Positions 10,793-57,432 of a DNA stretch of 64,000 bases are shown here, in pieces. Each line of letters starts with the position of its first letter. Within the stretch, counting starts at the first letter, position 1. The position numbers were made by a program, and so were the translations under genes. The notes below the pieces were generated by a model. It was not told the origin of the DNA. It worked only from the letters and a program-made list of their open reading frames with translations, and searched no databases. The stretch is from NCBI GenBank assembly GCA_000509105.1, contig BAIF02000066.1, positions 1-64,000 on the forward strand, read 5' to 3'. The DNA is from Clostridiales bacterium VE202-21 (GTDB taxonomy: Bacteria > Bacillota > Clostridia > Lachnospirales > Lachnospiraceae).

Positions 10793-10800
10793 TATTCAAG

Positions 10801-11847: not shown

Positions 11848-14580
11848 ATGGACGCTATTGAGAGAGGAAAACGGCTGGAAGAGATTCTGGCAGAAAAAGG
11901 AATGTCAATGGGTTTAGCGTACGGCAGTGATGACTTACAGCAATCCGAAGAGATTGTTGACAGAGAGATTAAGCTGGAAAAAACAAAACGTGCAGAATAC
12001 TTAATGGATCTGTATTACCAGGCATTTTCAAGCGCAAGTGTTGAGTTCCCTTACTGGTACAGCAGAAAGTTTGCAGAATGTGACGGAGATGTGCTGGAAG
12101 TCCGCCGTGCAAAAGCGCTTGCATGCGCATATGCTCATTCTACCCCGAGTATTTATCCCAAAGATTTACTTCCGGGCGGAAAAACAGATTATTTAAGAGG
12201 CGGTTTTCCAATGCCATGGCTTACCAATTCATTCTACCTTGCAAAAGAAGATGAATTGAAGAGTGCGGCAGCAAGTGGAACGACGGCAATTGATGAGATT
12301 GCAGCGCTTGGAACCGGAGGCGGAAACGTAACCAAGAATCAGGGAAAAGTTGTTTCTCTTGCAGGTAAATTCGGGATCAGGGCGGAAGAAGTACCGGTAC
12401 TTACGAAACTGGCGAGAGAGTGGGCCGGAAAATCGGTAGAAGACCTTGGTCTTGCGTATGAGAAGATGATGTCTGACTACGAAGACAAGGCAAATATCAT
12501 GAAGAGCGTTCTGGTGTTCTGTGACAGCGGCTATACAATTCCGCAGGGACGTGAAGTTGCAAGCTACTATTTCCCACTGGAATATGGAATTGACGGAATG
12601 ATCAGATTCTGCGAGGAAAAGAAACTGGAAGTTGCAGGATTTGCAGATGGCGACGGAATCCTTGGTATGAAACGCCTGTATTTCTACGAGGCGGCACGTA
12701 TTGTATTAGGCGGTATTCAGCAGTTCTGGATGAATTATGTGAAAGAATTGAGAACCGTTGCTGAGATTGAGCCGGATGCAGCTCAGAAAGAAGAGTATCT
12801 TGCACTTGCAGAACAGATGGAATGGATCGCCCACAATCCACCGAGAAACTTCAGAGAAGCACTGCATCTTACTTATTTGATCCATATTACAGTATTGAAT
12901 GAAGATGCAATCTCCGGATACTCTCCGGGACGTCTCGGGCAGGTGCTTTATCCGTATTTTGAAAAAGATATTGCAGATGGAACTATTACAGAAGAAGAAG
13001 TCATTGAGCTTCTGGAAGTACATCGTTTCAAATTCAGTACAATTGAGCTGTTCGCAAGCACAGGAATCTCGGGAGGTATTTCAGGCAATACATTTAACAA
13101 CCTTTCTGTGGGAGGCCTTGATAAAGACGGCGCACCCTGTGGAAACAGACTGGAGTGGCTTATTCTTCATGCGGGTATGACAAATCAGTCTCCACAGCCG
13201 ACTTTATCGGTATTATATGATGAGAGACTTCCGAAGGATTTCCTGATTAAGTGTGTGGAATGTACCAAGACTGGGGTTGGATACCCGGCATGGATGAATA
13301 ACCGGGTTGCGATGGACTTTATGATGAATCAGTACGGCGCAGAGGGGATGACGGTATCTGAGGCACGCGCAGTGGCAATCGGCGGATGTCTGGAGACTGC
13401 GCCTGGCTGTTTCATGCCTCTTCATTTCAACGGAAAGACACACTATATTCCGGCAGGCGCAAGCCAGACAACTTCGGTAGGCGTACACTTTGTATCGAAT
13501 CCGAAGATGATCAATATGGTACTGTTCAACGGTGTGGATCCAAGAACCGGCATACAGGTACTTCCGCCGCACAACAGAGAGCTTAAGACCTATGAGGATT
13601 TCTGGGATCAGTATAAAAAGTATTATGCAAAGACATTGGAGCCGACTGTAAAAGCGGGGAATATCCAGCATGACATCTGGCGTGACAGAAATATGTCTAT
13701 TGTAAACTCCCTGTTCAAACCGGACTGCCTGAAGAACGGACATCATATCGGACATATGGGAACCAGGTATAATGCGACCTATAATATCGAGTCCTGCGGT
13801 ACGATCAATATGGTTAACTCACTTGCGGCGTTGAAGAAGCTTGTTTATGAAGAGAAAAAGTACACATTGGATGATTTCAGAGATGCGATCAAGGATAACT
13901 TTGGCTTCTATACAGCAGTAGAATCAAAAGCATTCTCATTGGGCGAGCAGATTAAAAAGCCAGATGTTACAAAATATGATGAGATTCATGGCGACTGCCT
14001 GAAAGCCCCAAAACATGGGAATGATGAGGACTACGTGAAAGAGATTCTGAAAGAGTATGAAGACTGGTTCTGCGATCTCTGTAATACATACGAATCTCTG
14101 TATGCAAAACCAATGTATGCATGTCAGATCTCCGTGGCGCTGCATGCTGCAGTGGGTATGGCAACATTTGCAACACCGGATGGACGCCTGTGCAATACGG
14201 CATTTGCAGATGGTTCCATGTCTGCATATCCTGGTACAGACCGGAAGGGGCCATATGCTTTACTGGCTTCCGGGTGCTGTTGGGATCAGAGCAAATCCCA
14301 GAACTCGCAGATTAATATGAAATTCCATCCAAACGCAGTACGCGGACTTGACGGGAGCAAGAAGTTACTGACCATGATTTCAGCATTTATGAATAAGGGC
14401 GGATTCCATGTTCAGTTTAACATTGTTGATTCTAAAATGTTAAAAGAGGCACAGAAACATCCGGAGGCAAACCGGGATTTGTTAGTCAGAGTTTCTGGAT
14501 TTACACAGTACTGGGTAGAGACAGGCAAACCGGTTCAGGACGAAGTAATTGCCCGGACAGAATTTGAAGGAGGTATCTGA
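11848..14580 (+). CDS. hpdB: 4-hydroxyphenylacetate decarboxylase, large glycyl-radical subunit
   Basis: Catalytic subunit that decarboxylates 4-hydroxyphenylacetate to p-cresol by radical chemistry, the end of tyrosine fermentation. The pyruvate-formate-lyase-like fold spans 910 residues. Key residues line up with the Clostridium scatologenes enzyme at a constant offset of 11: thiyl Cys514 and Glu516 in GGCLET (C503/E505), His547 (H536), Glu648 in YNIESCG (E637, which contacts the substrate hydroxyl) and radical Gly884 in RVSGFTQYW (G873). The reference numbers are from memory of the published structure. The ATG follows AAAGGAGGAG. The small subunit follows directly; the activase hpdA is two genes on. 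A related arylacetate decarboxylase is the main alternative, but the small subunit argues against it. Confidence 0.93.
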   Translation: MDAIERGKRLEEILAEKGMSMGLAYGSDDLQQSEEIVDREIKLEKTKRAEYLMDLYYQAFSSASVEFPYWYSRKFAECDGDVLEVRRAKALACAYAHSTPSIYPKDLLPGGKTDYLRGGFPMPWLTNSFYLAKEDELKSAAASGTTAIDEIAALGTGGGNVTKNQGKVVSLAGKFGIRAEEVPVLTKLAREWAGKSVEDLGLAYEKMMSDYEDKANIMKSVLVFCDSGYTIPQGREVASYYFPLEYGIDGMIRFCEEKKLEVAGFADGDGILGMKRLYFYEAARIVLGGIQQFWMNYVKELRTVAEIEPDAAQKEEYLALAEQMEWIAHNPPRNFREALHLTYLIHITVLNEDAISGYSPGRLGQVLYPYFEKDIADGTITEEEVIELLEVHRFKFSTIELFASTGISGGISGNTFNNLSVGGLDKDGAPCGNRLEWLILHAGMTNQSPQPTLSVLYDERLPKDFLIKCVECTKTGVGYPAWMNNRVAMDFMMNQYGAEGMTVSEARAVAIGGCLETAPGCFMPLHFNGKTHYIPAGASQTTSVGVHFVSNPKMINMVLFNGVDPRTGIQVLPPHNRELKTYEDFWDQYKKYYAKTLEPTVKAGNIQHDIWRDRNMSIVNSLFKPDCLKNGHHIGHMGTRYNATYNIESCGTINMVNSLAALKKLVYEEKKYTLDDFRDAIKDNFGFYTAVESKAFSLGEQIKKPDVTKYDEIHGDCLKAPKHGNDEDYVKEILKEYEDWFCDLCNTYESLYAKPMYACQISVALHAAVGMATFATPDGRLCNTAFADGSMSAYPGTDRKGPYALLASGCCWDQSKSQNSQINMKFHPNAVRGLDGSKKLLTMISAFMNKGGFHVQFNIVDSKMLKEAQKHPEANRDLLVRVSGFTQYWVETGKPVQDEVIARTEFEGGI

Positions 14581-36121: not shown

Positions 36122-37321
36122 TTAGCGCGCATTGCTTAGCAGTTTTCTCAGGCTCTGCGTTTCTACAATTCTATAGTTAGACAGCCATAATTGTTTGTCC
36201 TTACCTGCTAACTGTGGATTCGTATAGGTTTCGAACGTATTCTGCACGATATTTACCCCAACTTCGTTCCATATTTCCATAGGATCGAACAGCCAGGAGA
36301 CCTCCTGATCGATTACGTCATATTTCAACAGACTGCGGAATGCCCCGAAAATAGGGTAAATATATCCGCTGGATACAACGTAATTGGTATCCGTGCACAG
36401 GAATTCCGTCTTGGCACTTTTTTCCAGTGATTCAATCCCGCGGACGCTGCCGAACCGGGGGACGCTGACGCCCAATGCCTTTTTATACTCCTGGTATTTG
36501 ACAGGCAGTTCATGTTCGATAACATCGTATAAAGAAACCAGCTTGGGGATCTGTCTGGTCAGAGATTTATAAAAGGGGGTGTTATAGGCTTCCTTATAGC
36601 GCTTAAAGACCTGAGCCTTTCCGGAATAGCTCTGCACCGGGGCCGCAGAATCGTCAGGATATTTGGTGATATCAAAGGCATACATCAGGCGGAGCAATTC
36701 CGAGATATTAATGGGTTTATTTTCATTATCTTTGTATGCAATACGGCTGGCATACGGTTGGCTGCTGATTGCGTCTTTTATTTCCTCAAAATTGTCATCC
36801 AGATTAAATAGTGCAATGTCCGATACCTGGACAGAGGTATTCCGGGCATCGGATAGCCGGGAGATATTCTGTACATTTGTAATAACTTCGATGCGGACAT
36901 ATTTTGTGATTCCTGCAGGGATTGCATTGCGCTTTTTAATAATTGCAGTATAGGTATGGCCGCCGTCCAGAATTCCGTAAACAAACCGGTCATTTTCATT
37001 GTCTTGATCACCAATATCGATCGTAACTTCGGAATCTGTGCTGTTAAAAGTAAGCGATTTGGCAGCGATTACGATTCCGCGGTTGTTGATATAAAAGTCC
37101 GTCTCGGGTTCCGTGACCGCGGCCAACAGACTTTTGGCAACATTGGTGGTCATCTTTGGCTCCCTTGGGTTTACATCCAGGGGAATGTTTTCGGGCAGAT
37201 CCTTCATGTCCACCAATAAATAATAAATAGTCTCATATGTACTTTCATCTTTCGCTCCTTTTTTATAGGGAGAGACGAGGGTTCGAAGGGAGTTGACTTT
37301 AAACTTCAGCGGTTTCTTCAT
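36122..37321 (-). CDS. AIPR (abortive infection phage resistance) family protein
   Basis: A 399-residue protein with the AIPR family pattern: FYINNRGIVIAAKSLTF near residue 75, then YGILDGGHTYTAIIKKR (the family's DGGHT motif) and the DARNTSVQVSDIALFNLDD stretch. AIPR proteins are linked to abortive infection and appear in defence islands beside nucleases and restriction genes; the mechanism is not established. It is read leftward, divergent from a small HTH gene with a shared 117-bp control region, and separated from the neighbouring + genes by a bidirectional terminator. It starts AAGGAGG-type (complement at about 37327-37335). Confidence 0.85.
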   Translation of the reverse strand: MKKPLKFKVNSLRTLVSPYKKGAKDESTYETIYYLLVDMKDLPENIPLDVNPREPKMTTNVAKSLLAAVTEPETDFYINNRGIVIAAKSLTFNSTDSEVTIDIGDQDNENDRFVYGILDGGHTYTAIIKKRNAIPAGITKYVRIEVITNVQNISRLSDARNTSVQVSDIALFNLDDNFEEIKDAISSQPYASRIAYKDNENKPINISELLRLMYAFDITKYPDDSAAPVQSYSGKAQVFKRYKEAYNTPFYKSLTRQIPKLVSLYDVIEHELPVKYQEYKKALGVSVPRFGSVRGIESLEKSAKTEFLCTDTNYVVSSGYIYPIFGAFRSLLKYDVIDQEVSWLFDPMEIWNEVGVNIVQNTFETYTNPQLAGKDKQLWLSNYRIVETQSLRKLLSNAR

Positions 37322-37409
37322 AAATAATTCCTCCTTAGAATGCCAGAAATGCTTCCATGCGGTTGTCTTTATTATAAAAATAGAGTAATATAAAATCTAT
37401 AAAAAATAA

Positions 37410-37425
37410 ATGCACCATGGTGCAT
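37410..37425. promoter_or_regulatory. perfect 16-bp palindrome in the AIPR/HTH divergent region
   Basis: ATGCACCATGGTGCAT is fully self-complementary and lies 13 bp before the HTH gene start and about 90 bp before the AIPR start. It is the obvious operator for the HTH protein, which would control itself and perhaps AIPR. Confidence 0.65.
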
Positions 37426-37438
37426 ATTTGGAAAAATC

Positions 37439-37729
37439 ATGGCGGAGAAAAAAGAATACAGTCAGGCGCTGGTCAGAGTGGGCGAACTGTTGTCGGGCAA
37501 GAGAAAAGGCCTTGGTGAACAGTATAAGAACAGAGAAAACTTCATAGACCTCAGAAGCGAGGAACTGTTTGGGGGAGAACCCTGGATCTCCCCGCGGCAC
37601 CTGGCAAATGTAGAGCTGGGGAAAAATTGGATTAGCATTGAGAAGCTCATTGTATTGGCAAATGCTTTGGAAGAAAATCCGGTGGAGTTGTTTGAAGAAA
37701 TTTTGGATGCTTATTTGGGGAAGGAATAG
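37439..37729 (+). CDS. small helix-turn-helix (XRE-like) regulator
   Basis: 96 residues. The segment PRHLANVELGKNWISIEKLI, then VLANALEENPVELF, matches the second half of an XRE/Cro helix-turn-helix, preceded by an atypical insertion (ENFIDLRSEELFGGEPWIS) between the first helices. It starts 13 bp after the 16-bp palindrome with only a weak ribosome site (TGGAAA), consistent with low, self-limited expression. It is divergent from AIPR and precedes the nuclease-helicase operon, so it may control the whole defence-like cluster. Confidence 0.72.
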   Translation: MAEKKEYSQALVRVGELLSGKRKGLGEQYKNRENFIDLRSEELFGGEPWISPRHLANVELGKNWISIEKLIVLANALEENPVELFEEILDAYLGKE

Positions 37730-37776
37730 GGAATACAGTAAAATAACGCAGCTTTCATGATTTATTGCCAGGTCTG

Positions 37777-37805
37777 TTGAAAAAGATCTGTATTTCCGGT
37801 ACACT
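37777..37805 (+). promoter_or_regulatory. promoter of the nuclease-helicase operon
   Basis: TTGAAA (37777-37782), 17-bp spacer and TACACT (37800-37805), 64 bp before the first helicase gene. Confidence 0.7.
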
Positions 37806-37869
37806 AGAGTGAGAGCAGTCAGGATATATAAGAATACAAACAGGCAGGGGCTGCCTGTGGAGATAAACT

Positions 37870-39753
37870 ATGAAAATATATGCAAAAACAGTTGGAGAGT
37901 TCATAAATGATGTAGAAAATAGAACCTTTCTGGCAACATTGGAGAAAAATTACAGAGTTTTAGCAGGGAAAGTTCAGACCGGTGAATACCGTGCATGGCA
38001 GCATTCTGTGCAGAAGTATATGTACGCGGTTATTAAGAAGGCAGGACTCCCAGCAGACGCCGGGATCGCTGTTGAATATCAGGTACCCGGGCTTTCCGAG
38101 CGGGTAGACCTGATAATAACCGGATTTGATGATAATGGAGAAATGACTGCAATATTAATAGAACTGAAACAGTGGTCAGCCATAGAATGCTGTGACAGTG
38201 CAGTAAGCTATAAAGTGCAGATCCCAATGAGCGGCGGGAGTGAATTGAGGGATCATCCATGTTATCAGATTAATTATTATAAAAATGCAATAGCAGGAGG
38301 TATTAGTAAAGAGGATGTCCCCCTGCACTTATGCCCGGCTGTAGTATTACATAATTACTGCTTACAGGAAAATGAAGATCCTCTTTTTCAAAATGGGTAT
38401 AAAAATTATATGTTAAATATCCCCGTGTTTTTTAAAGGAGAGGATGAGAAACTAGAGTCTTATCTGGCAGAGAAAATTAAAAGCGGTGATAATGGAAGCG
38501 TATTGACTTATATTGAAACAAAATGCTGTGGTATTTCCCTGACTCTTTTAGAATTGTTAAAAAAATTGAGTGTAAATGACAGTTCCCTGCGATTAAATGC
38601 AGAACAGCAAAGAATGCAGGGAACAGTCATGAAAATGCTGAATACTGCCAAACGCGATAAACGTAAAAAAGTAGTATTGGTGCAGGGCGGTCCGGGAACG
38701 GGTAAATCAGTAGTAGCTTTGAAAATCTTGGCAGCATGTTTGTGTGAGCATACGGATATGAACTGTTATTATACTGCGAAAAATAAAGCACTCAGAGCAG
38801 TTTTGAGGTTTGACTTAAGACAAATAGCAGGAATGGAACGGTTTAGCAGCAGTATCGTATACCCTCCTTTCTTCGAAAAACTCGAAAGAAATAAAGCCAG
38901 TGTCATTACCGTTGATGAAGCTCATCGACTAAGCGAGGAAAAACAGATTGTGTCTATTATAAAAGCTGCGGTAGTTTCCGTTTTCTTTATAGATGAGGGA
39001 CAGATTGTTTCCTTTGAAGATATTGGAACGAAAGAAGTAATTATGGAATGTGCAAAGCGTCAGGATGCGGATATTATCGATGCAGGAGAGCTGCAGGCAC
39101 AATTCAGGTGCAGGGGAATGACAGACTATATCCAATGGGTTGACGCACTTTTGGAGAATGAGGAAGGAGAGGCAGTCAGTCTCAAGTATGATATCCAGGT
39201 AGAAGATAATTTTAAAAAATTTGAAGGTTCTCTGGAAAAGATGAACCGAAGAAATCTAAATACCAGAATTATTGCAGGATATTGCTGGGAGTGGAAGACG
39301 CGAAATGACCGAACAAAGAAGCTATATGATTTTAATATTGAAAATGAAAATCTGCGCTGGAATAATGATGACAAGATAGATCCTGTCAGCTGGGCTATAG
39401 GCGAAACATTTGATCAGATTGGCTGTATTCATACCTGTCAGGGATTAGAATTTTGTTATGTGGGAGTCATTATCGGAGAAGATCTGAGATATGAAAATGG
39501 GAAAATAATTACGGATATTAGTAAGAGGGCAACTGATGACTATACCGTAAGCAAGAGTGCAAGAGAAAAATTCTTACGTAAGTTTGGAATAGAAGCGACA
39601 ATGAAACGAGAAGTGGATATTGTAAAAAATACATACAGGGTATTGCTGACACGAGGGACAAGAGGGTGTAAAGTATACTGCATGGACAAAGCTTTGGGAG
39701 AACATATTAAAGACAGACTTTCAAAGTCCAGTGGAGTGAATCGGGGAATATAA
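37870..39753 (+). CDS. PD-(D/E)xK nuclease - DUF2075 helicase fusion, paralogue 1
   Basis: A 627-residue protein. Residues 1-140 form a likely restriction-type nuclease: Glu69, Asp80 in ERVDLIITG and Glu98-x-Lys100 in LIELKQW, with HPCYQ at 129-133. The DUF2075 (Schlafen-type) superfamily 1 helicase follows: Walker A GGPGTGKS (273-280), Walker B TVDEAHR (348-354), QFRCRGM, and the C-terminal HTCQGLEFCYVGVIIG and NTYRVLLTRGTRG motifs. Such a protein would bind and cut DNA or RNA while hydrolysing ATP. A paralogue follows 12 bases later and a MazG-like gene after that. Function as phage defence is inferred from domain types and the neighbouring AIPR gene. Confidence 0.85.
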   Translation: MKIYAKTVGEFINDVENRTFLATLEKNYRVLAGKVQTGEYRAWQHSVQKYMYAVIKKAGLPADAGIAVEYQVPGLSERVDLIITGFDDNGEMTAILIELKQWSAIECCDSAVSYKVQIPMSGGSELRDHPCYQINYYKNAIAGGISKEDVPLHLCPAVVLHNYCLQENEDPLFQNGYKNYMLNIPVFFKGEDEKLESYLAEKIKSGDNGSVLTYIETKCCGISLTLLELLKKLSVNDSSLRLNAEQQRMQGTVMKMLNTAKRDKRKKVVLVQGGPGTGKSVVALKILAACLCEHTDMNCYYTAKNKALRAVLRFDLRQIAGMERFSSSIVYPPFFEKLERNKASVITVDEAHRLSEEKQIVSIIKAAVVSVFFIDEGQIVSFEDIGTKEVIMECAKRQDADIIDAGELQAQFRCRGMTDYIQWVDALLENEEGEAVSLKYDIQVEDNFKKFEGSLEKMNRRNLNTRIIAGYCWEWKTRNDRTKKLYDFNIENENLRWNNDDKIDPVSWAIGETFDQIGCIHTCQGLEFCYVGVIIGEDLRYENGKIITDISKRATDDYTVSKSAREKFLRKFGIEATMKREVDIVKNTYRVLLTRGTRGCKVYCMDKALGEHIKDRLSKSSGVNRGI

Positions 39754-39765
39754 GGATGAGATACG

Positions 39766-41631
39766 ATGATAATTTACAATGGGACAAAAACGGATTTTTT
39801 GAAAAGCGTGGAAGAAGATACAATAGCGCTGGAAATAGAAGCGGGCATGTATCAGAAGATGAACAGGCATACGGCATCCAATGAATTTCGGGCCTGGGAA
39901 AATTCGCTGGAATATATGTATAAAGTGCTGAATGATGAAGGAATTCCTCAAAATGCCGGAATTGCAATTGAGTATAACATTCCTCACACATCCAGAAGAG
40001 TGGACTTTTTGATCTCTGGTTATGATTTACAGAACAAAGGAAATGTGATTATTATAGAATTAAAACAGTGGGGCAATCTTGAAGCGGTGGATGGAAGAGA
40101 CGGACTGGTAGAAACCTACACAGGAAATGCAGTACGCCGTGTGGTGCATCCCTCCTATCAGGCATGGTCATATGCAATGCTGATTGGGGATTATAATCAA
40201 TCTGTCCAGAACGAAGGAATTCGTCTCTTTCCCTGTTCGTATCTTCACAATTACAGAAGAAAATCAGATGATCCATTAGATGCAGTGCAGTATTTGGAGT
40301 ATCTAAAAGAAGCTCCTGCATTTACACGGGGGCAGGTTAAAAAATTTAGGGAATTTATCAAAAAGCGGATTGTTGCCGGTGATAACAAAACCCTAATCTA
40401 CCATATTGACAGTGGCAGAATAAAACCGTCTAAGAGTCTGCAGGACTCCATTGTTAATATGCTTAAGGGGAATCAGGAATTTGTCATGATAGATGATCAG
40501 AAGGTAGTATATGAAGAGATTCTTGGATTAGCAAGACAGTCCCAAAGAGATCAAAAAAAACGGGTAATTGTCATACAGGGAGGTCCGGGTACGGGCAAGA
40601 CGGTTGTAGCGGTTAATCTGCTGGCACAATTGACATATGAAGAGCAGTTTTGTCAGTATGTTTCGAAAAACAGTGCACCGAGAAATGTTTATCTAAAGAA
40701 ATTGAAGGGAACCATGAAGAGAAGCAGTATTGATAATATGTTTAAGGGGTCAGGCGCCTATACTATGATGCCGAAAGACAGCATGGACACGCTGCTTGTG
40801 GATGAGGCCCACCGCCTAAATGAAAAGTCCGGTATGCTTCATAATCAGGGAGTTAACCAAATCATGGAGATTATACATGCCGCAAAATGCAGTGTGTTTT
40901 TTATTGACGAAAGTCAAAGGGTAACAATCAGTGATATCGGGAGTAAAGCTGAGATTCAACGGTGGGCAGAAAAAGAGGAAGCAGAATACTTTGAAATGGA
41001 GCTGACCTCACAGTTCAGATGCAATGGGTCCGAAGGGTATCTTGCCTGGCTGGATGACGTGCTGGAGATCCGCCCAACTGCTAATTACGATCTGCAGGAT
41101 TTGAATTATGATATCAAAATTCTGGATTCCCCAAAGGAAGTACATGAAATAATCATTGAAAAAAACAGAAGTGCCAACCATGCCAGAATACTTGCCGGAT
41201 ATTGTTGGGACTGGCCCAAAAAGGGCAGAAATAACTCTGAGGTGCATGACATAAAAATTGATGATTTTGAAATCAGCTGGAATCTGGAGAACACCACCAC
41301 ATTTGCAATCGACGAAAACTCTGTTAATGAGGCTGGCTGTATTCATACATGCCAGGGGCTCGAATTCGAATATGCGGGGGTTATCATTGGCAATGATATG
41401 CGCTTTGAAAACGGCCATATCGTTACTGACTTTACTAAAAGAGCTTTAACGGATCAATCACTTAAGGGAATTAAGAAAATGAGCAGAGAAGACCCGGAAC
41501 ATGCAGTAAAAGTTGCGGATGAATTAATTAAAAACACATATCGGACACTGATGACACGTGGCATGAAGGGATGTTATGTCTACTGTGTTGACAAAAATCT
41601 GGCAGAATACCTGAAAGGAAGATTACAGTAA
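39766..41631 (+). CDS. PD-(D/E)xK nuclease - DUF2075 helicase fusion, paralogue 2
   Basis: A 621-residue paralogue of the preceding gene with the same order of domains. The nuclease residues fall at identical positions: Glu69, Asp80 (RRVDFLISG), Glu98 and Lys100 (IIELKQW), and HPSYQ at 129-133. Walker A GGPGTGKT (272-279), LVDEAHRLNEK, FIDESQRVTISDIGSKAE, SQFRCNGSEG, HTCQGLEFEYAGVIIG and NTYRTLMTRGMKG are intact. The two proteins differ widely elsewhere, so the duplication is old and both copies have been kept. They may act as a heteromer. The ribosome site AAGGATGAG lies in the short gap. Confidence 0.86.
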   Translation: MIIYNGTKTDFLKSVEEDTIALEIEAGMYQKMNRHTASNEFRAWENSLEYMYKVLNDEGIPQNAGIAIEYNIPHTSRRVDFLISGYDLQNKGNVIIIELKQWGNLEAVDGRDGLVETYTGNAVRRVVHPSYQAWSYAMLIGDYNQSVQNEGIRLFPCSYLHNYRRKSDDPLDAVQYLEYLKEAPAFTRGQVKKFREFIKKRIVAGDNKTLIYHIDSGRIKPSKSLQDSIVNMLKGNQEFVMIDDQKVVYEEILGLARQSQRDQKKRVIVIQGGPGTGKTVVAVNLLAQLTYEEQFCQYVSKNSAPRNVYLKKLKGTMKRSSIDNMFKGSGAYTMMPKDSMDTLLVDEAHRLNEKSGMLHNQGVNQIMEIIHAAKCSVFFIDESQRVTISDIGSKAEIQRWAEKEEAEYFEMELTSQFRCNGSEGYLAWLDDVLEIRPTANYDLQDLNYDIKILDSPKEVHEIIIEKNRSANHARILAGYCWDWPKKGRNNSEVHDIKIDDFEISWNLENTTTFAIDENSVNEAGCIHTCQGLEFEYAGVIIGNDMRFENGHIVTDFTKRALTDQSLKGIKKMSREDPEHAVKVADELIKNTYRTLMTRGMKGCYVYCVDKNLAEYLKGRLQ

Positions 41632-41632
41632 A

Positions 41633-41995
41633 ATGGAAGATTATACAGTGAAAGAATTAACGGAGAAAGTAAGAGCATTCTGCAGTGAGCGTGACTGGGA
41701 TCAGTTTCATAATCCTAAAGATCTGGCAATTGGGATTTCAACAGAAGCGAATGAACTTTTAGATATATTCCGCTTTAAAAACGAAGAGGAAATGAAAAAA
41801 ATCATGAACGATGAAATAAAGCGCCGGCATGTTGAAGAGGAATTGGCAGATGTACTGTTTTTTGTACTGCGTTTTGCTCAGATGAATCACATGGATCTTA
41901 AGGATATACTGACCAGTAAAATACAGAAGAATGGCCAAAAGTATCCTGCCGATGAAGTGAGGGGTAAAAACTTTAAATATAATGAATATAAATAA
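41633..41995 (+). CDS. MazG-like nucleotide pyrophosphohydrolase
   Basis: A 120-residue all-alpha NTP pyrophosphohydrolase. The metal-binding pattern is seen as Glu38-x-x-Glu41 (STEANELLDIF) and Glu70-x-x-Asp73 (EEELADVLFFV). It would hydrolyse (d)NTPs to monophosphates. The ATG lies two bases after the helicase stop, so it is translationally coupled to paralogue 2. In this setting it could deplete nucleotides or remove modified ones during infection; that is inference. Small MazG-like proteins also have housekeeping roles. Confidence 0.9.
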   Translation: MEDYTVKELTEKVRAFCSERDWDQFHNPKDLAIGISTEANELLDIFRFKNEEEMKKIMNDEIKRRHVEEELADVLFFVLRFAQMNHMDLKDILTSKIQKNGQKYPADEVRGKNFKYNEYK

Positions 41996-46345: not shown

Positions 46346-47521
46346 ATGAGTATGGAATTAAAATTGGATTCAGAAATTATCTATGAAAATAATCTAGATA
46401 CAATTAAATTTGCAAAAATGCTGGATGACCCTTCCCAGTGTTATAAATTCTATTGGCTCGAAGCAATCCTGAATTTAATTAGGGATAATGAAGTGGTAAG
46501 TTTTGATGCTATTATTAATGAAATGATCTGCGGGGCCTGGTATACAGTCACCTGTTTTCACCTTCATCTGGGACCGGTTATAAAAAACAAAACAGAGAAT
46601 TTTCTTGAACATGCCATTAACACTCTGGCTAAGAACTCGGATTTATCACAAGATGCAGAAAGGGAAGACATTATAGCGGCCATCAAGCTGAATGAAAAGG
46701 AACTGAGAAGTGATAAAACGAACCTTACGAACTGCGTTCCGTACAGGCTTTTGTCATCTTTCCTGGATGAACTCGGGGGCGGGAATAAACTTTGGAACCA
46801 GCGGGGGAGGCTGATTGAGTATATCAATCGGATGAATGAAAAAACATCGCTTCTCTACACCATTATTGATGGAAAAGGACTGCAGAAAAAGATCCGGATT
46901 AATCCCCACTGGAGGCAGCTGATACTAGATAACTATCCTGTAATATACAGCTGGATCCAATTAAAGAAAATCCGTTTTCTGCAGGACCGTAACCCGGGAG
47001 TTCCCGGCATCATATATAAATTAGAGCGCGAGAATAACAAGATCCGGAAATTGCATCACGCCAGAGAACTATGGAAAAGTGCGGTCGAAATAGGCGGCTC
47101 CCCGATATATGATATCTACTCAGGAAAAGAATTGGATCTTAAAAGTTATGACTTGGATCACTTTGTTCCACGGTCATATATCGCAAATGACGAATTATGG
47201 AACTTAACGCCAATGGAGAAGAGGCTGAATTCCAGCAAGAATAACAGACTTCCGGAATGGGACAGCTATTTTCCGGGGCTGGCTGGCAATCAGTATTACT
47301 TATATAAAATTGTTTTCAGCAATCCCGGTATCCGTAAAAAATTCGAAAATTGCAGGAGAGATAATCTCAATGCAATATGGGCAAGTGAAACCTTATTTAT
47401 CGAGGGAAACACGGAGGAAAGATTTACGAATATACTTGAACATAATTTAAAACCACTGCATGAATCCGCCTTGCTGCAGGGATATGGATTATGGAAATGT
47501 CCTGCGGATTTGATTCTGTAG
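46346..47521 (+). CDS. HNH endonuclease domain protein
   Basis: A 391-residue protein with an unassigned helical N-terminal region of about 230 residues and a C-terminal HNH nuclease: IYSGKELDL, YDLDHFVPRS (His272), then LWNLTPMEKRLNSSKNNRLP. The ββα-metal core is of the type found in Cas9 and in stand-alone defence nucleases (HNH_4). A SAM methyltransferase gene follows 57 bases later. It could be a modification-dependent or conflict nuclease. The start follows GGTGG and is fairly weak. Confidence 0.82.
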   Translation: MSMELKLDSEIIYENNLDTIKFAKMLDDPSQCYKFYWLEAILNLIRDNEVVSFDAIINEMICGAWYTVTCFHLHLGPVIKNKTENFLEHAINTLAKNSDLSQDAEREDIIAAIKLNEKELRSDKTNLTNCVPYRLLSSFLDELGGGNKLWNQRGRLIEYINRMNEKTSLLYTIIDGKGLQKKIRINPHWRQLILDNYPVIYSWIQLKKIRFLQDRNPGVPGIIYKLERENNKIRKLHHARELWKSAVEIGGSPIYDIYSGKELDLKSYDLDHFVPRSYIANDELWNLTPMEKRLNSSKNNRLPEWDSYFPGLAGNQYYLYKIVFSNPGIRKKFENCRRDNLNAIWASETLFIEGNTEERFTNILEHNLKPLHESALLQGYGLWKCPADLIL

Positions 47522-47578
47522 CTGCTTCCTTGAAATAAATAAGAAATCCAGAAAGTTTATGGAAGGCGGGAAATACGG

Positions 47579-48187
47579 ATGGAAGATAGTAAGACAATCA
47601 CCTATTATAATGAGCATGCAGAGGAATTTATAGAAAACACCTGGAAGGCTGATATGTCAGAAGTTTACGGCCGCTTTTTAAAATACATGGAGCCAGGTGC
47701 GCATATATTGGATGCGGGCTGCGGCAGTGGACGCGATAGCTATTGGTTTATGCAAAAGGGATACCAGGTGACGGTTGCCGATGCATCGGAGTCGATGTGT
47801 AAAGCTGCTGAACGACTGACCGGCCAGCAGGTAGTGCAGTTCCGTTTTGAGGATATGGATTTTCAAGAGGCGTTTGATGGTATATGGGCCTGCGCCTCTT
47901 TGCTGCATGTAAAGAGAGATAAGTTACCGGAGATAATCGGGAAAATGATGACTGCCTTAAGAGAGGGAGGCGTCCTATATGCCTCATGGAAATACGGGCT
48001 TTCTGAAAGATGGTCTGGTGACCGGTATTTTTGCGATCTTACACAGGAAGAACTGTCACAAATACTCTCGGAACAAGGTGGATATATATTAGAGGAATGG
48101 TGGATTACAGAGGATGTGCGGGTAGAGCATAAATCTGAAAGGTGGCTGAATGTTATTATCAGAAAAAGTAATCGAAAAATAAAATAA
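47579..48187 (+). CDS. class I SAM-dependent methyltransferase
   Basis: 202 residues with motif I ILDAGCGSGRDSYWF, VTVADASESMCKAA (motif II) and ALREGGVLYASWKYG (post-motif). It resembles the Methyltransf_11/TehB-like small-molecule methyltransferases. There is no DPPY or PC motif, so it is not a recognisable DNA methylase. It is next to the HNH nuclease gene and may be co-transcribed; a functional link is not shown. Confidence 0.88.
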   Translation: MEDSKTITYYNEHAEEFIENTWKADMSEVYGRFLKYMEPGAHILDAGCGSGRDSYWFMQKGYQVTVADASESMCKAAERLTGQQVVQFRFEDMDFQEAFDGIWACASLLHVKRDKLPEIIGKMMTALREGGVLYASWKYGLSERWSGDRYFCDLTQEELSQILSEQGGYILEEWWITEDVRVEHKSERWLNVIIRKSNRKIK

Positions 48188-49830: not shown

Positions 49831-50718
49831 ATGCGATATCTCTCAGTTAATGAAACAGCGAAAAAATGGAATATATCGGAGCGAAGTGTGAGAAATTATT
49901 ACGCTCATAGGCGTGTAAAAGGCGCATTTCTTACCAGCAAGACCTGGAACATTCCGGAAGATGCTGAAAAACCAGAGCGATCCAACAAGAGAAAAGAACA
50001 GATAACTTTGCTGGATATTTTGCAGGGACAGAAGGCAAGTAAATATTCAGATGGAATTTACCATAAGACTCAAATTGATTTAACATATAATTCAAACCAT
50101 ATGGAAGGCAGCCGTCTGACTCGCGATCAGACCAGATATATTTTTGAAACTAATACTATCGGCGTGGAAAATGAAGTTCTCAATGTGGATGATGTGATTG
50201 AAACAGCAAATCATTTTCGTTGTATTGATATGATCATTGATCATGCAAAATTCGCTTTGACGGAAAAGCTTATTAAGGAACTGCACCTGATACTAAAAAG
50301 CGGAACCAGTGATTCCAGAAAAGACTGGTTTGCAGCGGGAGAATATAAGAAACTGCCAAATGAGGTGGGCGGCATGGAAACCGTACTTCCGGAAGAAGTT
50401 GTCGACAAAATGAAGGCCCTGCTGGCAGAGTACAATGCGAAAGAAGAAAAGACCTTTGAGGATATTTTAGATTTCTATGTGAAGTTTGAGAGAATCCACC
50501 CATTTCAGGACGGAAACGGCCGTGTGGGCAGACTGATTATGTTTAAAGAGTGTCTGAAATATAATATTGTTCCGTTTATCATCGAGGATCATCTAAAACT
50601 AATTTATTATCGAGGATTGAAAGAGTGGGATAATGAGAAGGGGTATCTGACAGATACCTGTCTGACGGCGCAGGATAAATATAAAGTTTATCTGGATTAT
50701 TTCAGGATTGAGTATTAA
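49831..50718 (+). CDS. Fic family protein with N-terminal HTH, copy 1
   Basis: 295 residues. An N-terminal MerR-like helix-turn-helix (VNETAKKWNISERSVRNYYA, about residues 4-45) is followed by a Fic domain with the complete catalytic loop HPFQDGNGRVGRLI. The autoinhibitory motif (S/T)xxxE(G/N) is seen as SNHMEG before the core, the class II arrangement. Fic enzymes usually transfer AMP to protein hydroxyls; targets here are unknown. The HTH suggests it regulates its own or other genes. A second HTH-Fic gene lies 1.1 kb downstream, across broken IS66 pieces. The start follows GGAGG. Confidence 0.9.
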   Translation: MRYLSVNETAKKWNISERSVRNYYAHRRVKGAFLTSKTWNIPEDAEKPERSNKRKEQITLLDILQGQKASKYSDGIYHKTQIDLTYNSNHMEGSRLTRDQTRYIFETNTIGVENEVLNVDDVIETANHFRCIDMIIDHAKFALTEKLIKELHLILKSGTSDSRKDWFAAGEYKKLPNEVGGMETVLPEEVVDKMKALLAEYNAKEEKTFEDILDFYVKFERIHPFQDGNGRVGRLIMFKECLKYNIVPFIIEDHLKLIYYRGLKEWDNEKGYLTDTCLTAQDKYKVYLDYFRIEY

Positions 50719-51765: not shown

Positions 51766-51810
51766 TATTATTCCGATAGCGTTGCTATTATTCCGATAAT
51801 TGGGTATACT
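51766..51810 (+). promoter_or_regulatory. promoter of Fic copy 2 with direct repeats
   Basis: TTGCTA (51782-51787), 17-bp spacer and TATACT (51805-51810). TATTATTCCGATA occurs twice in direct orientation, 20 bp apart (51766-51778 and 51786-51798), the second inside the spacer. Two helical turns of spacing suits a dimeric or tandem HTH regulator, possibly the HTH-Fic protein itself. Confidence 0.6.
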
Positions 51811-51835
51811 ATTGTTTGAAGCGAGGTGCAGAAAT

Positions 51836-52729
51836 ATGTATATGTCAGTAAAACAGACCGCAGAGAAATGGGGCATTTCAGATAGAAGAGTACGAATATT
51901 ATGTTCAGAGGGGAAAATTCCAGGTGTTATTCGTGAGGGGCGCAGTTGGAAGGTTCCAGCAGAGGCGCAAAAACCGGAGGATGGCCGGTATAAGTCTGCG
52001 GAAAGCCTGCTTGAGAACATTGATAGGAAGAAAATAGAACTGGATTCCAGACGTCCTTTGACTGAGGGAGAGGTTGAGCGGCTGACAGAGGAATTTGTGG
52101 TTGAATTCACTTATAATTCCAATGCCATTGAGGGGAATACGCTGACTCTCCGTGAAACTGATATGGTACTGCGCGGTTTGACCATTGATCAGAAGCCTTT
52201 AAAAGATCATATGGAGGCGGTTGGACATAAGGAAGCCTTTGATTTTGTGAGGGAATTAGTGAAAGAACAGTCACCATTATCAGAAAGTATCATTAAACAA
52301 ATTCATTATTTAGTGTTGGCTGATAAAAAAGATGACAAGGGTGTATACAGAAAAGTTCCGGTAAGAATTATGGGGGCAAAACATGAGCCTGTACAGCCGT
52401 ATTTAATCCAGCCGAAGATGGAGCAGTTGCTGGAGGGTTATAGAAAAAGCCCAGAGCATATCATTCCCAGGCTTGCCTGGTTTCATATTGAATTTGAAGG
52501 CATTCACCCGTTTATCGATGGTAATGGCCGCACGGGGCGCTTGCTTGTGAATCTGGAATTGATGAAAGCAGGATATCCACCGATCGATATAAAATTTGCG
52601 GATCGAATTGCGTATTACAGTGCTTTTGACGAATACCATGTGAAGCATAATTGGGGAGCGATGGAGAAATTATTTGCGGGGTATGTGAATGAAAGACTGG
52701 ACAGCTATTTAGCAATGCTAAAAGAATAA
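51836..52729 (+). CDS. Fic family protein with N-terminal HTH, copy 2
   Basis: 297 residues. The HTH VKQTAEKWGISDRRVRILCS is followed by the linker GVIREGRSWKVPAEAQKP and a Fic domain with HPFIDGNGRTGRLLVN. The inhibitory motif is SNAIEG, again in a FTYNSN context as in copy 1. The DNA-binding halves of the two copies are similar but the Fic cores diverge. ATG 51836 follows GAGGTG; the longer frame runs through the promoter. Confidence 0.9.
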   Translation: MYMSVKQTAEKWGISDRRVRILCSEGKIPGVIREGRSWKVPAEAQKPEDGRYKSAESLLENIDRKKIELDSRRPLTEGEVERLTEEFVVEFTYNSNAIEGNTLTLRETDMVLRGLTIDQKPLKDHMEAVGHKEAFDFVRELVKEQSPLSESIIKQIHYLVLADKKDDKGVYRKVPVRIMGAKHEPVQPYLIQPKMEQLLEGYRKSPEHIIPRLAWFHIEFEGIHPFIDGNGRTGRLLVNLELMKAGYPPIDIKFADRIAYYSAFDEYHVKHNWGAMEKLFAGYVNERLDSYLAMLKE

Positions 52730-54150: not shown

Positions 54151-57100
54151 ATGTACATAGCAGATTTGCATATCCATTCCCATTATTCCCGTGCAACCAG
54201 CAGGGACTGTAATCTGGAAAACCTGGACTTATGGGCGAGACGAAAGGGAATTCACATTGTCGGAACCGGTGATTTTACCCATCCGGCCTGGCGGGAAGAA
54301 ATGCTGGAAAAGCTCCAGCCGGCGGAAGAAGGGCTTTACACTTTGAAAGAAGAATACCGCATATCAGACGGCTCTGTAGCGGATGTGATGATCCCAAGGT
54401 TTGTAATCACAGGAGAAATCAGTTCTATCTATAAGAAGTACGACAGAGTCCGGAAGGTACACAGCCTGATTTTGCTGCCGGGCCTGGAGGACGCGGAGAT
54501 ACTGGCAAGAAAGCTGGAGATCATTGGAAATATCCATTCAGACGGGCGGCCGATCCTGGGGCTGGACTGTCATGATCTGCTGGAAATTATGTTGGAGTTG
54601 TGTCCCGGTGCAATTTATGTGCCCGCTCATATCTGGACACCTCATTTTTCCCTTTTCGGTGCTTTCTCAGGATTCGATTCGGTGGAGGAGTGCTTTGGGG
54701 ATTTAGCAGGACATATCCATGCTATGGAGACCGGCCTGTCCTCTGACCCGCCGATGAACTGGCGGATTTCTGCGCTGGATCAGTATCAGCTGATTTCCAA
54801 CTCAGATGCGCATTCCCCGGCTAAATTGGGCCGTGAAGCTAATCTGCTGGATATCGGGCTTTCGTTTACAGAACTCAGGGAGGCCATACAGACCGGAAAA
54901 GGCCTGCATGGAACGATTGAGTTTTTCCCCGAAGAAGGAAAATACCATTACGACGGCCACCGAAAATGCGGCATCTGCCTGACGCCCGCGGAGACGATAA
55001 AATATGGGGGCGTCTGCCCCGTATGCGGCCGAAAGCTGACAATCGGAGTGTCGCATCGGGTAGAACAGCTGGCTGACCGCGAAGAAGGCTATGTTCGGAC
55101 TGGGGCGAAAGGTTTTGAGAGCCTGGTGCCTCTGCCGGAAGTGATTGGAGCATCCCTGGGGCACTCTGCGGCGAGTACAAAAGTACAGAAGGAGTATCAG
55201 AATATGCTGCGTACATTGGGACCGGAGTTCGAAATACTGCGGACGGTTCCTGAGGAAGAAGTGAAAAAAATATCGGGTCATCTGATTGCGGAAGGAATCC
55301 GAAGACTGAGAGATGGGAAGGTAGAGCGCAATCCGGGATTTGATGGAGAGTATGGGACAATTCAATTATTTACGCAGGACGAGATCGACCGTTTGGATGG
55401 GCAAATGAGTTTCTTTGATGCCCTTTGTATCCAGGCAGCAGAGACGGTAGAGAAACGCATCAACGAAGAGGGGAATCAGGCTGATAAGCCACAGATGTCC
55501 GGTGACGGCAAGGAGACTGCAGCGGAAACAGGGGCGGAAAATGTTGTACCAGAGAGCATGGCAGACGGTGAGAAAACTGTAGGGGAAGCGGACAGCCAGA
55601 ACCAATCGGCGGGGCTCAACCCGGAACAGGAACAGGCAGTTCGTGCCGTGGGCAGCGCAATTGCCGTGGTTGCCGGGCCAGGTACCGGAAAAACAAAGAC
55701 TCTGATATCAAGGATTTTACATATGCTGGAGGTGCGAAAGGTAAAGCCTTCTGAAATTACTGCGGTTACATTTACAAATAAGGCGGCAGGGGAGCTGATG
55801 GAAAGAATCAAAAAGGCGATTGGCAGAACCAGAAATCTGAACAAAATGCAGGTAGGGACTTTCCACGCGATCTGCCTGAATTTCCTGAAAAAACAGGGGA
55901 TCGAATTTTCACTGGCGGATGATGCGGCCTCAATGGAGGCGGCAGGAAGGGCATTGGACGAAACCGGGCTGAAGATGAAGCCAAAAGAACTGCTCCGGGT
56001 GGTTTCCCTTCTCAAATCGGGAATGTCCCCCGAAGAGATGCAGACCAGGCTGGTGCAAAACGGTGCGGATGAAGAGGAGACGGATATGCCTCTGAACTGG
56101 CAGGAAGGAGCGGATGCGTACCAGAGGATTCTTCAGGAACAGAAGCTGTTGGATTTTGACGACCTGCTTCTGGAGACATTAAAGCGAATGGAACAGGGAG
56201 TCGCGCAGGAAGGATGGGAAAAAGGGTTTTCCTATCTGCTTGTCGATGAATTTCAGGATATCAGTCCCATACAGTACCGTCTTATTCAGGCTTGGAACAA
56301 AGGCGGAAGGGAGCTGTTTGTAATTGGGGATCCGGATCAGTCCATCTATGGTTTCCGTGGATCGGATGCGCGTTGTTTTGAAAAGCTGAAACAGGATTAT
56401 CCGGATATGCAGGAGATCCGGCTTGCATGGAACTACCGCTGTATACCTTCCGTACTTCATGCGGCTGCGTCTGTTATTTCACACAATCCGGGACCGGAGA
56501 GACGGCTTTTGCCCCACAGGCAGGAAGAAATGCCGGTACGCGTAGTAAAAGCAGCAAGCGAGATGGCAGAGGCCATATTTACAGCAAAGGAGATCAATAG
56601 GCTTACAGGCGGAATCGGCATGCTGGAAGCCCAGGAGATTGGCGCCGGAAGCGGAAAAGAACGGGGATTCGGTGACATCGCCGTGCTCTACCGCACACAC
56701 CGGCAGGCTGACCTGTTGGAGAGATGCCTCAGAAAAGAAGGAATCCCATATGTTACAGCGGGAAGAGAAGCATTTCTGGCTGAGGATGAAGTAAGAGGGA
56801 GCATATCCTTCTTCAAATGCCTGGCGAATCCGGCGGATGAGTTTTCTAAGAAAATATCCCTGAAGCTGTTATGGGATATGGAAATCAATGTGGTGGCAGA
56901 AGGCGTATTTCAGGCAATGGCAGAAAAGTTCAGACCCCTCTATGCAAAAAGCAGAACTCAGAAGTTCCTGGAGAAATGGATAGAAGAAATGCAGATGCAG
57001 GATAGCAGTGCGATGAAAAAACTTGCGGGCATGACGGTGTTCTATAAAAATATGGATGAATTTATGGAGGCGCTGAGCATGGGTGTGGAGAGCGATTTAA

Positions 57101-57432
57101 AACGCTGCGGTGACAAGCGCTATACAGGCGAGGCGGTCACGCTTATGACGCTTCACGGGGCAAAAGGACTGGAGTTTCCTGTAACATTCATCTATGGTGT
57201 CAGAAAAGGGCTTATCCCCTTTGAAAAAGACGATACTGTTGATACAGAAGAGGAGCGCAGGCTTTTCTATGTTGGTATGACAAGGGCGAAAGACGAACTG
57301 ATACTGACAACTTCCCAGGAAGAATCCGGATTTCTCGCGGAACTGCCTGAGGAGGAAATCTGCCGGGAGCGGGCAGACAAACGTAAAAATGCGGACAGTG
57401 GGAAACAGATGAGTCTGTTCGATTTTCTATAA
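54151..57432 (+). CDS. PHP-domain / UvrD-family helicase fusion
   Basis: 1093 residues. Residues 1-430 are a PHP-type metallo-domain (DLHIHSHYSRATSRDC, TGDFTHPAW, ISNSDAHSPAKLGREAN) with a CxxC zinc pair (CGICLTP, CPVCGRKL). An acidic linker (430-490) leads to a superfamily 1A helicase: Walker A AGPGTGKTKT, TFTNKAAGELMERI, LLVDEFQDISPIQ, GDPDQSIYGFRG, LAWNYRC, and TLHGAKGLEFPVTF, then FYVGMTRAKDEL. The C-terminus QMSLFDFL is a sliding-clamp-binding motif; QMSFFDAL near 427 is a second candidate. Likely a repair helicase working at the clamp. Such PHP-UvrD fusions are found in Firmicutes. Confidence 0.92.
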   Translation: MYIADLHIHSHYSRATSRDCNLENLDLWARRKGIHIVGTGDFTHPAWREEMLEKLQPAEEGLYTLKEEYRISDGSVADVMIPRFVITGEISSIYKKYDRVRKVHSLILLPGLEDAEILARKLEIIGNIHSDGRPILGLDCHDLLEIMLELCPGAIYVPAHIWTPHFSLFGAFSGFDSVEECFGDLAGHIHAMETGLSSDPPMNWRISALDQYQLISNSDAHSPAKLGREANLLDIGLSFTELREAIQTGKGLHGTIEFFPEEGKYHYDGHRKCGICLTPAETIKYGGVCPVCGRKLTIGVSHRVEQLADREEGYVRTGAKGFESLVPLPEVIGASLGHSAASTKVQKEYQNMLRTLGPEFEILRTVPEEEVKKISGHLIAEGIRRLRDGKVERNPGFDGEYGTIQLFTQDEIDRLDGQMSFFDALCIQAAETVEKRINEEGNQADKPQMSGDGKETAAETGAENVVPESMADGEKTVGEADSQNQSAGLNPEQEQAVRAVGSAIAVVAGPGTGKTKTLISRILHMLEVRKVKPSEITAVTFTNKAAGELMERIKKAIGRTRNLNKMQVGTFHAICLNFLKKQGIEFSLADDAASMEAAGRALDETGLKMKPKELLRVVSLLKSGMSPEEMQTRLVQNGADEEETDMPLNWQEGADAYQRILQEQKLLDFDDLLLETLKRMEQGVAQEGWEKGFSYLLVDEFQDISPIQYRLIQAWNKGGRELFVIGDPDQSIYGFRGSDARCFEKLKQDYPDMQEIRLAWNYRCIPSVLHAAASVISHNPGPERRLLPHRQEEMPVRVVKAASEMAEAIFTAKEINRLTGGIGMLEAQEIGAGSGKERGFGDIAVLYRTHRQADLLERCLRKEGIPYVTAGREAFLAEDEVRGSISFFKCLANPADEFSKKISLKLLWDMEINVVAEGVFQAMAEKFRPLYAKSRTQKFLEKWIEEMQMQDSSAMKKLAGMTVFYKNMDEFMEALSMGVESDLKRCGDKRYTGEAVTLMTLHGAKGLEFPVTFIYGVRKGLIPFEKDDTVDTEEERRLFYVGMTRAKDELILTTSQEESGFLAELPEEEICRERADKRKNADSGKQMSLFDFL

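What the first reader, a model, noticed from the sequence alone, without database searches (positions are those of the whole stretch)
36122..41995. Tandem nuclease-helicase paralogues coupled to MazG beside AIPR: candidate anti-phage system
Seen: two adjacent proteins, each with a nuclease-like N-terminus (Glu69, Asp80, Glu98-x-Lys100, HPxYQ at 129-133, identical numbering in both) and a DUF2075 superfamily 1 helicase, then a MazG-like pyrophosphohydrolase two bases after the second. A divergent AIPR gene and a small HTH gene lie just upstream. Known: AIPR is associated with abortive infection, and PD-(D/E)xK-helicase proteins are common in defence. Inference: the pair may form a heteromeric nucleic-acid-degrading complex, with MazG adding nucleotide depletion, under control of the HTH protein.
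Basis: partly seen in the sequence, partly recalled or inferred. Interest (0 to 1): 0.85.

Follow-up and report, generated by a model that had tools for sequence, protein, structure and literature searches.

The report
Nuclease-helicase plus MazG defence module
A bacterium carries a DNA-cutting motor protein paired with an enzyme of a kind that destroys DNA building blocks; relatives of this pair sit together in bacteria and archaea, often beside known virus-defence genes in the places examined, so it is probably a little-described antiviral system, here with an unusual extra copy of the motor.

Summary
The genes are as described, bar one off-by-one. The conserved unit is not the tandem pair but HelB + MazG: MazG lies within 700 bp of HelB in 60 of 80 loci, and in 200 genomes of the family MazG occurs in 16 of 18 HelB-type carriers but 32 of 182 others. 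Of 20 MazG loci without adjacent HelB (of 37 such), 12 have another Schlafen-group-3 helicase beside MazG, 11 with a readable GIY-YIG-like N-terminus. So the nuclease is exchangeable while helicase and MazG stay together. Neighbours of HelB in 13 loci match 114 PADLOC families, control proteins of the same genomes 9. HelA is an orphan: no full-length relative above about 39%, a very long branch, catalytic motifs kept, a linker conserved in HelB relatives lost. AIPR and HTH are not part of the conserved module. Best reading: a two-gene nuclease-helicase/pyrophosphatase defence, with a diverged second helicase added here. The pairing appeared in no paper found (open-licence library). Function is untested.

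The parts
37870..39753 (+). HelA: diverged paralogue; N-terminal PD-(D/E)xK-like nuclease (E69, D80, E98, K100, Q133, Y137) + SF1 Schlafen-group-3 helicase (266-606)
   Evidence: orphan; long branch
39766..41631 (+). HelB: conserved member; same architecture, helicase 265-609
41633..41995 (+). MazG-like NTP pyrophosphohydrolase, sequence closest among solved structures to DCTPP1/RS21-C6; E38-x-x-E41 and E70-x-x-D73
37439..37729 (+). Small HTH protein (96 aa), possible regulator of the operon; not shown to belong to the conserved module
   Evidence: HTH_3, 21.0 bits, just below cut-off; no relative in the 80 HelB loci by BLASTP at 1e-4
37410..37425 (.). Perfect 16-bp palindrome in the AIPR/HTH divergent intergenic region, candidate operator
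   Evidence: the only match in the window with up to 3 mismatches; 25 of 100 shuffles have at least one match at that tolerance
36122..37321 (-). AIPR-family gene, divergent; neighbour rather than component
46346..47521 (+). HNH_4 protein; in several relatives beside MazG; looser island partner
47579..48187 (+). Small SAM methyltransferase-like gene (by eye); relatives lie next to HNH in some loci; looser island partner
   Evidence: the window copy itself was not scanned with family models

Best explanation
HelB and MazG form a two-gene defence module. Inferred mechanism: the SF1 (Schlafen-group-3) helicase loads on ends or gaps of invading or replicating foreign DNA and feeds it to its own N-terminal PD-(D/E)xK nuclease, while the DCTPP1-like MazG hydrolyses (d)NTPs, perhaps dCTP or base-modified dCTP, so that the invader cannot resynthesise what is cut. 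Other members carry a GIY-YIG-like domain in place of PD-(D/E)xK, so the constant part is motor + pyrophosphatase. In this genome a strongly diverged second copy, HelA, stands in front of HelB; it keeps the catalytic motifs but has lost the conserved nuclease-helicase linker, so it probably acts as a second specificity or as a modulating partner of HelB. Shown: gene linkage, domain families, motif conservation, nuclease exchange, defence-rich neighbourhoods in the loci tested. Inferred: antiviral function, DNA as target, dNTP as MazG substrate, the role of HelA.
For: MazG within 700 bp of HelB in 60 of 80 loci from Bacillota, Spirochaetes, haloarchaea, Saccharibacteria and others. In 200 family genomes, MazG in 16 of 18 HelB-type carriers versus 32 of 182 others, Fisher p 1.4e-9; adjacent in 12 of the 18. 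Of 20 MazG loci without adjacent HelB (of 37 such places), 12 have another PF09848 protein adjacent; 11 of these have a complete N-terminus with a GIY-YIG-like motif read by eye; Pfam GIY-YIG passed its cut-off in 1 of 4 scanned. Patchy presence: 18 of 200 genomes. PADLOC hits at 1e-20: 114 families among 128 neighbour proteins (Druantia, pAgo, DRT2, Ssp, restriction among those listed) versus 9 among 142 control proteins of the same genomes. Of five annotated plasmid stretches, two have restriction or methylase genes beside the helicase, one has cas3 in the stretch, and two have an annotated nucleotide pyrophosphohydrolase directly upstream. MazG's best solved relatives are RS21-C6 and dCTP pyrophosphatase 1, E 3.4e-18. 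HelB model: helix 38-55, strands 65-71, 78-86, 92-100, hairpin, helix 129-143, strand 153-160, with the invariant acidic, Lys and QxxxY residues in the expected elements. Helicase resembles UvrD, SLFN11 and HelD.
Against: 20 of 80 HelB loci lack a nearby MazG, and 8 of the 20 fetched MazG loci have no PF09848 protein adjacent. In the family sample 6 of 18 carriers have no adjacent MazG, two of them none at all. The close relative L073 (Murimonas) lies among ordinary-looking genes, not in a defence island. No sequence search placed the N-terminus in a nuclease family above threshold (Pfam NERD in 12 of 44 members, best 0.0022), a profile search of PDB sequences found nothing, and a profile comparison with one NERD protein found nothing. 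Only 4 of 50,697 phage records hold a HelB relative, so the gene itself is rarely phage-borne. No antiviral activity was measured. HelA's role is a guess.
Confidence: 0.6

Rival explanations
1. Housekeeping or stress module: the nuclease-helicase processes damaged host DNA and the MazG (with nearby Nudix enzymes elsewhere) cleans the nucleotide pool; no antiviral role.
For: MazG's best relative DCTPP1 is a pool-sanitising enzyme (family knowledge). Nudix genes lie in the fetched flanks of 11 of 80 loci. In the window nth- and ogg-like genes follow downstream (naming by eye). L073 sits among metabolic-looking genes.
Against: Patchy presence (18 of 200), plasmid copies and defence-rich neighbours in the 13 loci tested are unlike a repair core gene.
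Confidence: 0.2
2. RNA-directed defence: as in Schlafens, the helicase-nuclease acts on RNA (tRNA or phage transcripts) and MazG adds NTP depletion, giving dormancy or abortive infection.
For: Foldseek's two top hits are human SLFN11 structures and Pfam calls the domain Schlafen group 3. A 2026 paper states that several prokaryotic Schlafen-linked systems can act as anti-phage modules that cleave tRNAs (PMC12839542, passages seen).
Against: The similarity lies in the SF1 helicase, shared with UvrD, HelD and RecD2 at similar scores. No Schlafen RNase domain is among the Pfam families listed (all 23 for HelA, 25 of 36 for HelB). PD-(D/E)xK and GIY-YIG domains are mostly DNases (family knowledge).
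Confidence: 0.12
3. HelA is a decaying or neutral duplicate and adds nothing.
For: Very long branch, 1.76 versus median terminal 0.137; 32 of 144 positions at least 95% conserved in 108 HelB-type relatives are changed; linker 220-239 modelled with pLDDT below 50.
Against: Open frame of 627 aa; the nuclease and helicase motif residues examined are kept; 12-bp spacing to HelB. A decaying gene should lose motifs at random.
Confidence: 0.2
4. One reading: AIPR, HTH, HelA, HelB and MazG act as one system with a HelA/HelB heteromer.
For: Tight spacing of HelA, HelB and MazG; shared divergent region with a palindrome.
Against: AIPR rarely co-occurs; tandem helicases are rare and differ between loci. 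HelA-MazG has lower GC (0.398) than AIPR (0.443), a weak point because other nearby genes are as low.
Confidence: 0.08

Closest known systems
PF09848 Schlafen group 3 helicases (former DUF2075)
   Same: Both helicases far above cut-off. One E. coli defence-island survey lists PF09848 among 'Abi proteins' together with PF10592, the AIPR family (PMC10121019, one passage seen).
   Different: That passage names no nuclease domain and no MazG partner.
PADLOC PDC-S41, AbiO, Nhi
   Same: Hits, HelA and HelB: PDC-S41 69.7 and 64.2 bits, AbiO 45.9 and 49.4, Nhi 50.5 and 49.0.
   Different: Partial, weak hits mainly in the helicase region; no basis for calling HelB a member.
MazG as a predicted defence domain (DefensePredictor, PMC13092281, one passage seen)
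   Same: An NTP pyrophosphohydrolase (MazG) is listed among predicted defence domains, none experimentally validated.
   Different: The word 'helicase' does not occur in the held main text, so the pairing is not described there.
DCTPP1 / RS21-C6 dCTP pyrophosphatase (2a3q, 6sqw)
   Same: Best solved relatives of the window MazG, residues 6-118 aligned.
   Different: Not known to be partnered with a helicase (recalled); substrate of the window protein untested.
Nucleotide-depleting defences (dCTP deaminase, dGTPase) and nuclease-helicase systems such as Gabija or Hna (recalled, not compared here)
   Same: Would work alike: invader DNA cut, or precursors removed.
   Different: Homology was not tested; here both activities would sit in one operon.

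Membership tests
SLFN-g3 (PF09848) SF1 helicases | Full-length PF09848 match above the curated cut-off | tested here: met
   263.7 and 341.3 bits versus cut-off 24, profile 1-354/354
SLFN-g3 (PF09848) SF1 helicases | Walker A, DEAH-like motif and later helicase motifs conserved | tested here: met
   kept in HelA and HelB
PD-(D/E)xK nucleases | Conserved acidic residue, (D/E)xK and a RecB-like QxxxY motif (motif names recalled) | tested here: met
   E69, D80, E98, K100, Q132, Y136 invariant in 46 of 46
PD-(D/E)xK nucleases | alpha-beta-beta-beta-alpha-beta core | tested here: inconclusive
   order of elements fits; full-length fold searches were filled by the helicase; no family model above cut-off for the first member, others sub-threshold
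MazG / all-alpha NTP pyrophosphohydrolases | MazG-like model above cut-off and ExxE...ExxD | tested here: met
DCTPP1 subgroup | dCTP hydrolysis | not testable with these tools
   only sequence similarity
AIPR | PF10592 above cut-off | tested here: met
   159.3 bits versus 25
AIPR-dependent system | AIPR conserved beside HelB-MazG | tested here: not met
   0 of 80 loci by BLASTP with the window protein; 4 of 40 genomes examined hold any PF10592
Known PADLOC defence systems | Strong full-length match to a system model | tested here: not met
   best 69.7 bits, in three stretches; MazG, HTH and AIPR no hit up to E 1
Known PADLOC defence systems | Protects against phage | not testable with these tools
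   needs bench work

The most novel reading that the evidence does not exclude
A widespread, undescribed immune module of bacteria and archaea in which one Schlafen-like motor carries an exchangeable nuclease (PD-(D/E)xK or GIY-YIG) and works with a dedicated dCTPase-like MazG, coupling target destruction to precursor depletion; in this genome it has been upgraded to a three-protein form by a second, linker-less nuclease-helicase that partners HelB.
Probability: 0.25. Interest if true: 0.75.

Novelty: new variant of a known kind. Interest (0 to 1): 0.5.

Why it matters
It points to a compact, widely spread two-gene candidate that the PADLOC models tried here do not name. It pairs nucleic-acid cutting with nucleotide destruction, two strategies usually studied apart, and could help explain why MazG enzymes appear among predicted defence genes. 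The natural exchange of the nuclease makes the division of labour directly testable.

Tried and rejected
AIPR as component: rejected on co-occurrence (one search was given 40 of the 80 loci). Linker residues 217-250 as a MazG-binding patch: weakened, because two helicases without nearby MazG (L031, L038) keep the motif and the four GIY-YIG-like partners of MazG that the script printed (L179, L182, L195, L196) lack it. Placing the N-terminus by sequence: PDB profile search no hit, Pfam sub-threshold, comparison with one NERD protein no better than with an unrelated control. Literature: no paper with MazG and DUF2075 together; five papers with DUF2075, none on defence judging by title and abstract start; one irrelevant paper with Schlafen and MazG; PF09848 search, six papers. 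The library holds open-licence papers only, so this does not show that nothing is in print.

Limits of the counts. The defence test used 13 of 80 loci: those whose genomes gave a control stretch (13 of 20 asked; the other 7 contigs were too short). It counts families, not proteins, and one protein can hit several; 10 MazG proteins were left out of the neighbour set (128 of 138 used); only 25 of the 114 families were shown. The 20 MazG loci are 20 of 37 places without adjacent HelB and not a random draw: five (L187-L191) were chosen because an HNH gene lay close by; of these 4 of 5 have the adjacent helicase, of the other fifteen 8 of 15. Two of the 18 carriers (G015, G079) are distant matches (34% and 37%). 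Genes were called by a simple longest-ORF script. The tree left out short fragments and duplicates (118 sequences); the position of HelA at the base rests on weak supports (0.80, then 0.12) and long-branch attraction is possible.
Full report
What is there. The window holds five genes in the stated interval: AIPR 36122-37321(-), a 96-aa HTH protein 37439-37729(+), HelA 37870-39753(+), HelB 39766-41631(+) and MazG 41633-41995(+). HelA and HelB are paralogues, 35% identical over their length. Both have a PF09848 helicase (now called Schlafen group 3; formerly DUF2075) at residues 266-606 and 265-609, and MazG matches MazG-like PF12643 above its cut-off. The window is contig C78 of a 5.3-Mb genome. 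The closest HelB relatives in the tree, L055 and L073, come from Candidatus Merdenecus merdavium and Murimonas intestini, so the host is probably a member of the Lachnospiraceae (inference, taxonomy recalled).

The N-terminal domain. In 46 aligned proteins, HelA included, E69, D80, E98, K100, H128, P129, Q132 and Y136 (HelB numbering) are invariant. The AlphaFold model of HelB (mean pLDDT 86.5) gives helix 38-55, strands 65-71, 78-86 and 92-100, a hairpin at 114-127, helix 129-143 and strand 153-160, the order expected of a PD-(D/E)xK core with a QxxxY helix (family knowledge). HelA gives the same order. Sequence models do not reach significance: Pfam NERD hits 12 of 44 N-termini, best 0.0022, a PDB profile search found nothing, and a comparison with one NERD protein did no better than a control. 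The nuclease assignment is strong on motifs and open on a direct fold match.

The helicase. The HelB model aligns with UvrD (Z 21.2), SLFN11 (Z 20.0, but rmsd 18 over more than one domain) and HelD (Z 19.1); Foldseek ranks SLFN11 first. This shows an SF1 motor and does not by itself show a Schlafen-like RNA function.

MazG. Its best solved relatives are RS21-C6 and dCTP pyrophosphatase 1 (E 3.4e-18). E38, E41, E70 and D73 are conserved in 60, 59, 60 and 60 of 60 sequences. The substrate is untested.

What is conserved. All helicases found in the fetched loci score higher with HelB than with HelA. MazG lies within 700 bp of the helicase in 60 of 80: 38 upstream and 20 downstream on the same strand, 2 on the opposite strand; 20 of 80 have none. 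In 200 family genomes, 18 have a match to HelB at E <= 1e-40 (16 at 60% identity or more; G015 and G079 are distant). MazG is found in 16 of these 18 but in 32 of the other 182 (Fisher p 1.4e-9; without the window's own genome 15 of 17, p 5e-9). In 12 of the 18 the two are adjacent; in 4 MazG is elsewhere and in 2 (G079, G189) absent (coordinates).

Exchange of the nuclease. I fetched 20 of the 37 MazG places that lack an adjacent HelB. In 12 of 20 a different PF09848-type helicase lies next to MazG (L196 by the coordinates). Eleven of these have a complete N-terminus with a GIY-YIG-like motif, read by eye from sequences printed (the script's own pattern matched one of them); one is a fragment. 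Pfam GIY-YIG passed its cut-off in one of four scanned, and PADLOC PDC-S14 matched the N-terminal part of three of three. In 8 of 20 no such helicase was adjacent. Five of the 20 had been chosen because an HNH gene lay near; without them the figure is 8 of 15. So helicase and MazG stay together while the nuclease changes.

Neighbourhood. For 13 loci I compared the genes in about 14 kb around HelB (128 proteins, HelB and MazG left out) with 142 proteins from stretches of the same genomes chosen without regard to content. PADLOC hits at E <= 1e-20: 114 families (those shown include Druantia, pAgo, DRT2, SspC, methylases, type III and IV restriction) versus 9 (SspA/DndA, DpdF, IetA and others). 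Families, not proteins, are counted. Of five annotated plasmid stretches, two have restriction or methylase genes near the helicase, one has cas3 in the stretch, two have neither; in two a nucleotide pyrophosphohydrolase lies directly upstream. In the family, an HNH protein like window 46346-47521 occurs in 10 of 18 carriers and 32 of 182 others (p 0.0007) and lies beside MazG in several loci, sometimes with a methyltransferase, a PLD-helicase (PADLOC type IV restriction enzyme, 601 bits) and a Nudix protein (PDC-S07). In the window HNH and the methyltransferase-like gene lie 4.3 kb beyond MazG, behind a TetR gene and MFS-, nth- and ogg-like genes (named by eye). Against this, the close relative L073 sits among metabolic-looking genes, and a HelB relative was found in only 4 of 50,697 phage records.

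HelA. No collection gave a full-length relative above about 39%: genome contigs (not exhaustive), plasmids (34.7% over 99%, 36.4% over 57%, 40.3% over a 37% stretch), order genomes (at most 37%), viral contigs (none). In a tree of 118 sequences its branch is 1.76 against a median terminal branch of 0.137; its place at the base of the HelB clade has weak support. Of 144 positions at least 95% conserved in 108 HelB-type relatives HelA keeps 112, including the motif residues examined, and changes 32, 11 of them in 217-250. That stretch, a linker before the helicase, is kept by two relatives without nearby MazG (L031, L038) and is absent from the four GIY-YIG-like partners of MazG printed, so it more likely couples the nuclease to the motor than binds MazG. 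In the HelA model 220-239 is below pLDDT 50. Directly adjacent PF09848 pairs were seen in three other places (Hymenobacter plasmid L156, genome G205, L105), each with a different make-up and without an adjacent MazG in the stretches seen; two more copies some kilobases apart occur in G454, L070 and L093. Tandem duplication thus recurs but is rare.

AIPR, HTH and regulation. AIPR is a clear PF10592 protein, but no relative of it was found in the flanks of the 80 loci, 4 of 40 HelB genomes examined hold any PF10592, and only one other of 295 order genomes holds a relative of the window protein. A perfect palindrome, 37410-37425, lies just upstream of the HTH gene, and a promoter-like site lies at 37777-37805 before HelA (such sites are common by chance). 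Small HTH genes of another cluster occur in 5 of 80 HelB loci. HelA-MazG has a GC of 0.398 against 0.445 for the window, at the fifth percentile of equal stretches, a weak hint of foreign origin.

Comparison and verdict. PF09848 already appears in a list of Abi proteins (PMC10121019, passage seen), and MazG is listed as a predicted, unvalidated defence domain (PMC13092281, passage seen). I found no paper joining the two (open-licence library only). I therefore call this a new variant of a known kind: a probable nuclease-helicase defence with a dedicated nucleotide pyrophosphatase. The antiviral function, the DNA target and HelA's role are inferences.

Noticed in passing
window 46346-48187: HNH_4 protein and a small SAM methyltransferase-like gene whose relatives recur with MazG, a PLD-type IV restriction helicase and Nudix in other genomes.
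   Followed up: partly
window 49831-50718 and 51800-52729: Two different Fic-like proteins (HPFxDGNGR motif, recalled) close together downstream.
   Followed up: no
window 54151-57432: 1093-aa protein that looks like a PHP-type phosphoesterase fused to a UvrD-like helicase (by eye).
   Followed up: no
L158 (Microcystis phage Mwe-JY31, record 3843-5705): A HelB-type protein, 50% identical, annotated as hypothetical in a 22-kb phage record, with a gene of about 109 aa directly upstream that was not tested for MazG.
   Followed up: partly
L187:5469-5780, L190:3940-4251, L201:6969-7295: A small 'KLVRDKIP' protein recurring beside HNH/MazG or HelB; no Pfam or PADLOC hit at 1e-4 for the L187 copy; looks like another NTP pyrophosphohydrolase (by eye).
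   Followed up: partly
G000:C72:2284-2604 (L177): A second MazG-like gene in the same genome, 32% identical, with one stop codon inside the match; its contig has no PF09848 match.
   Followed up: no
L105:8235-9926 and 10001-11893: GIY-YIG-like and HelB-type PF09848 proteins side by side in one island, with a PLD-helicase and a methyltransferase downstream.
   Followed up: partly
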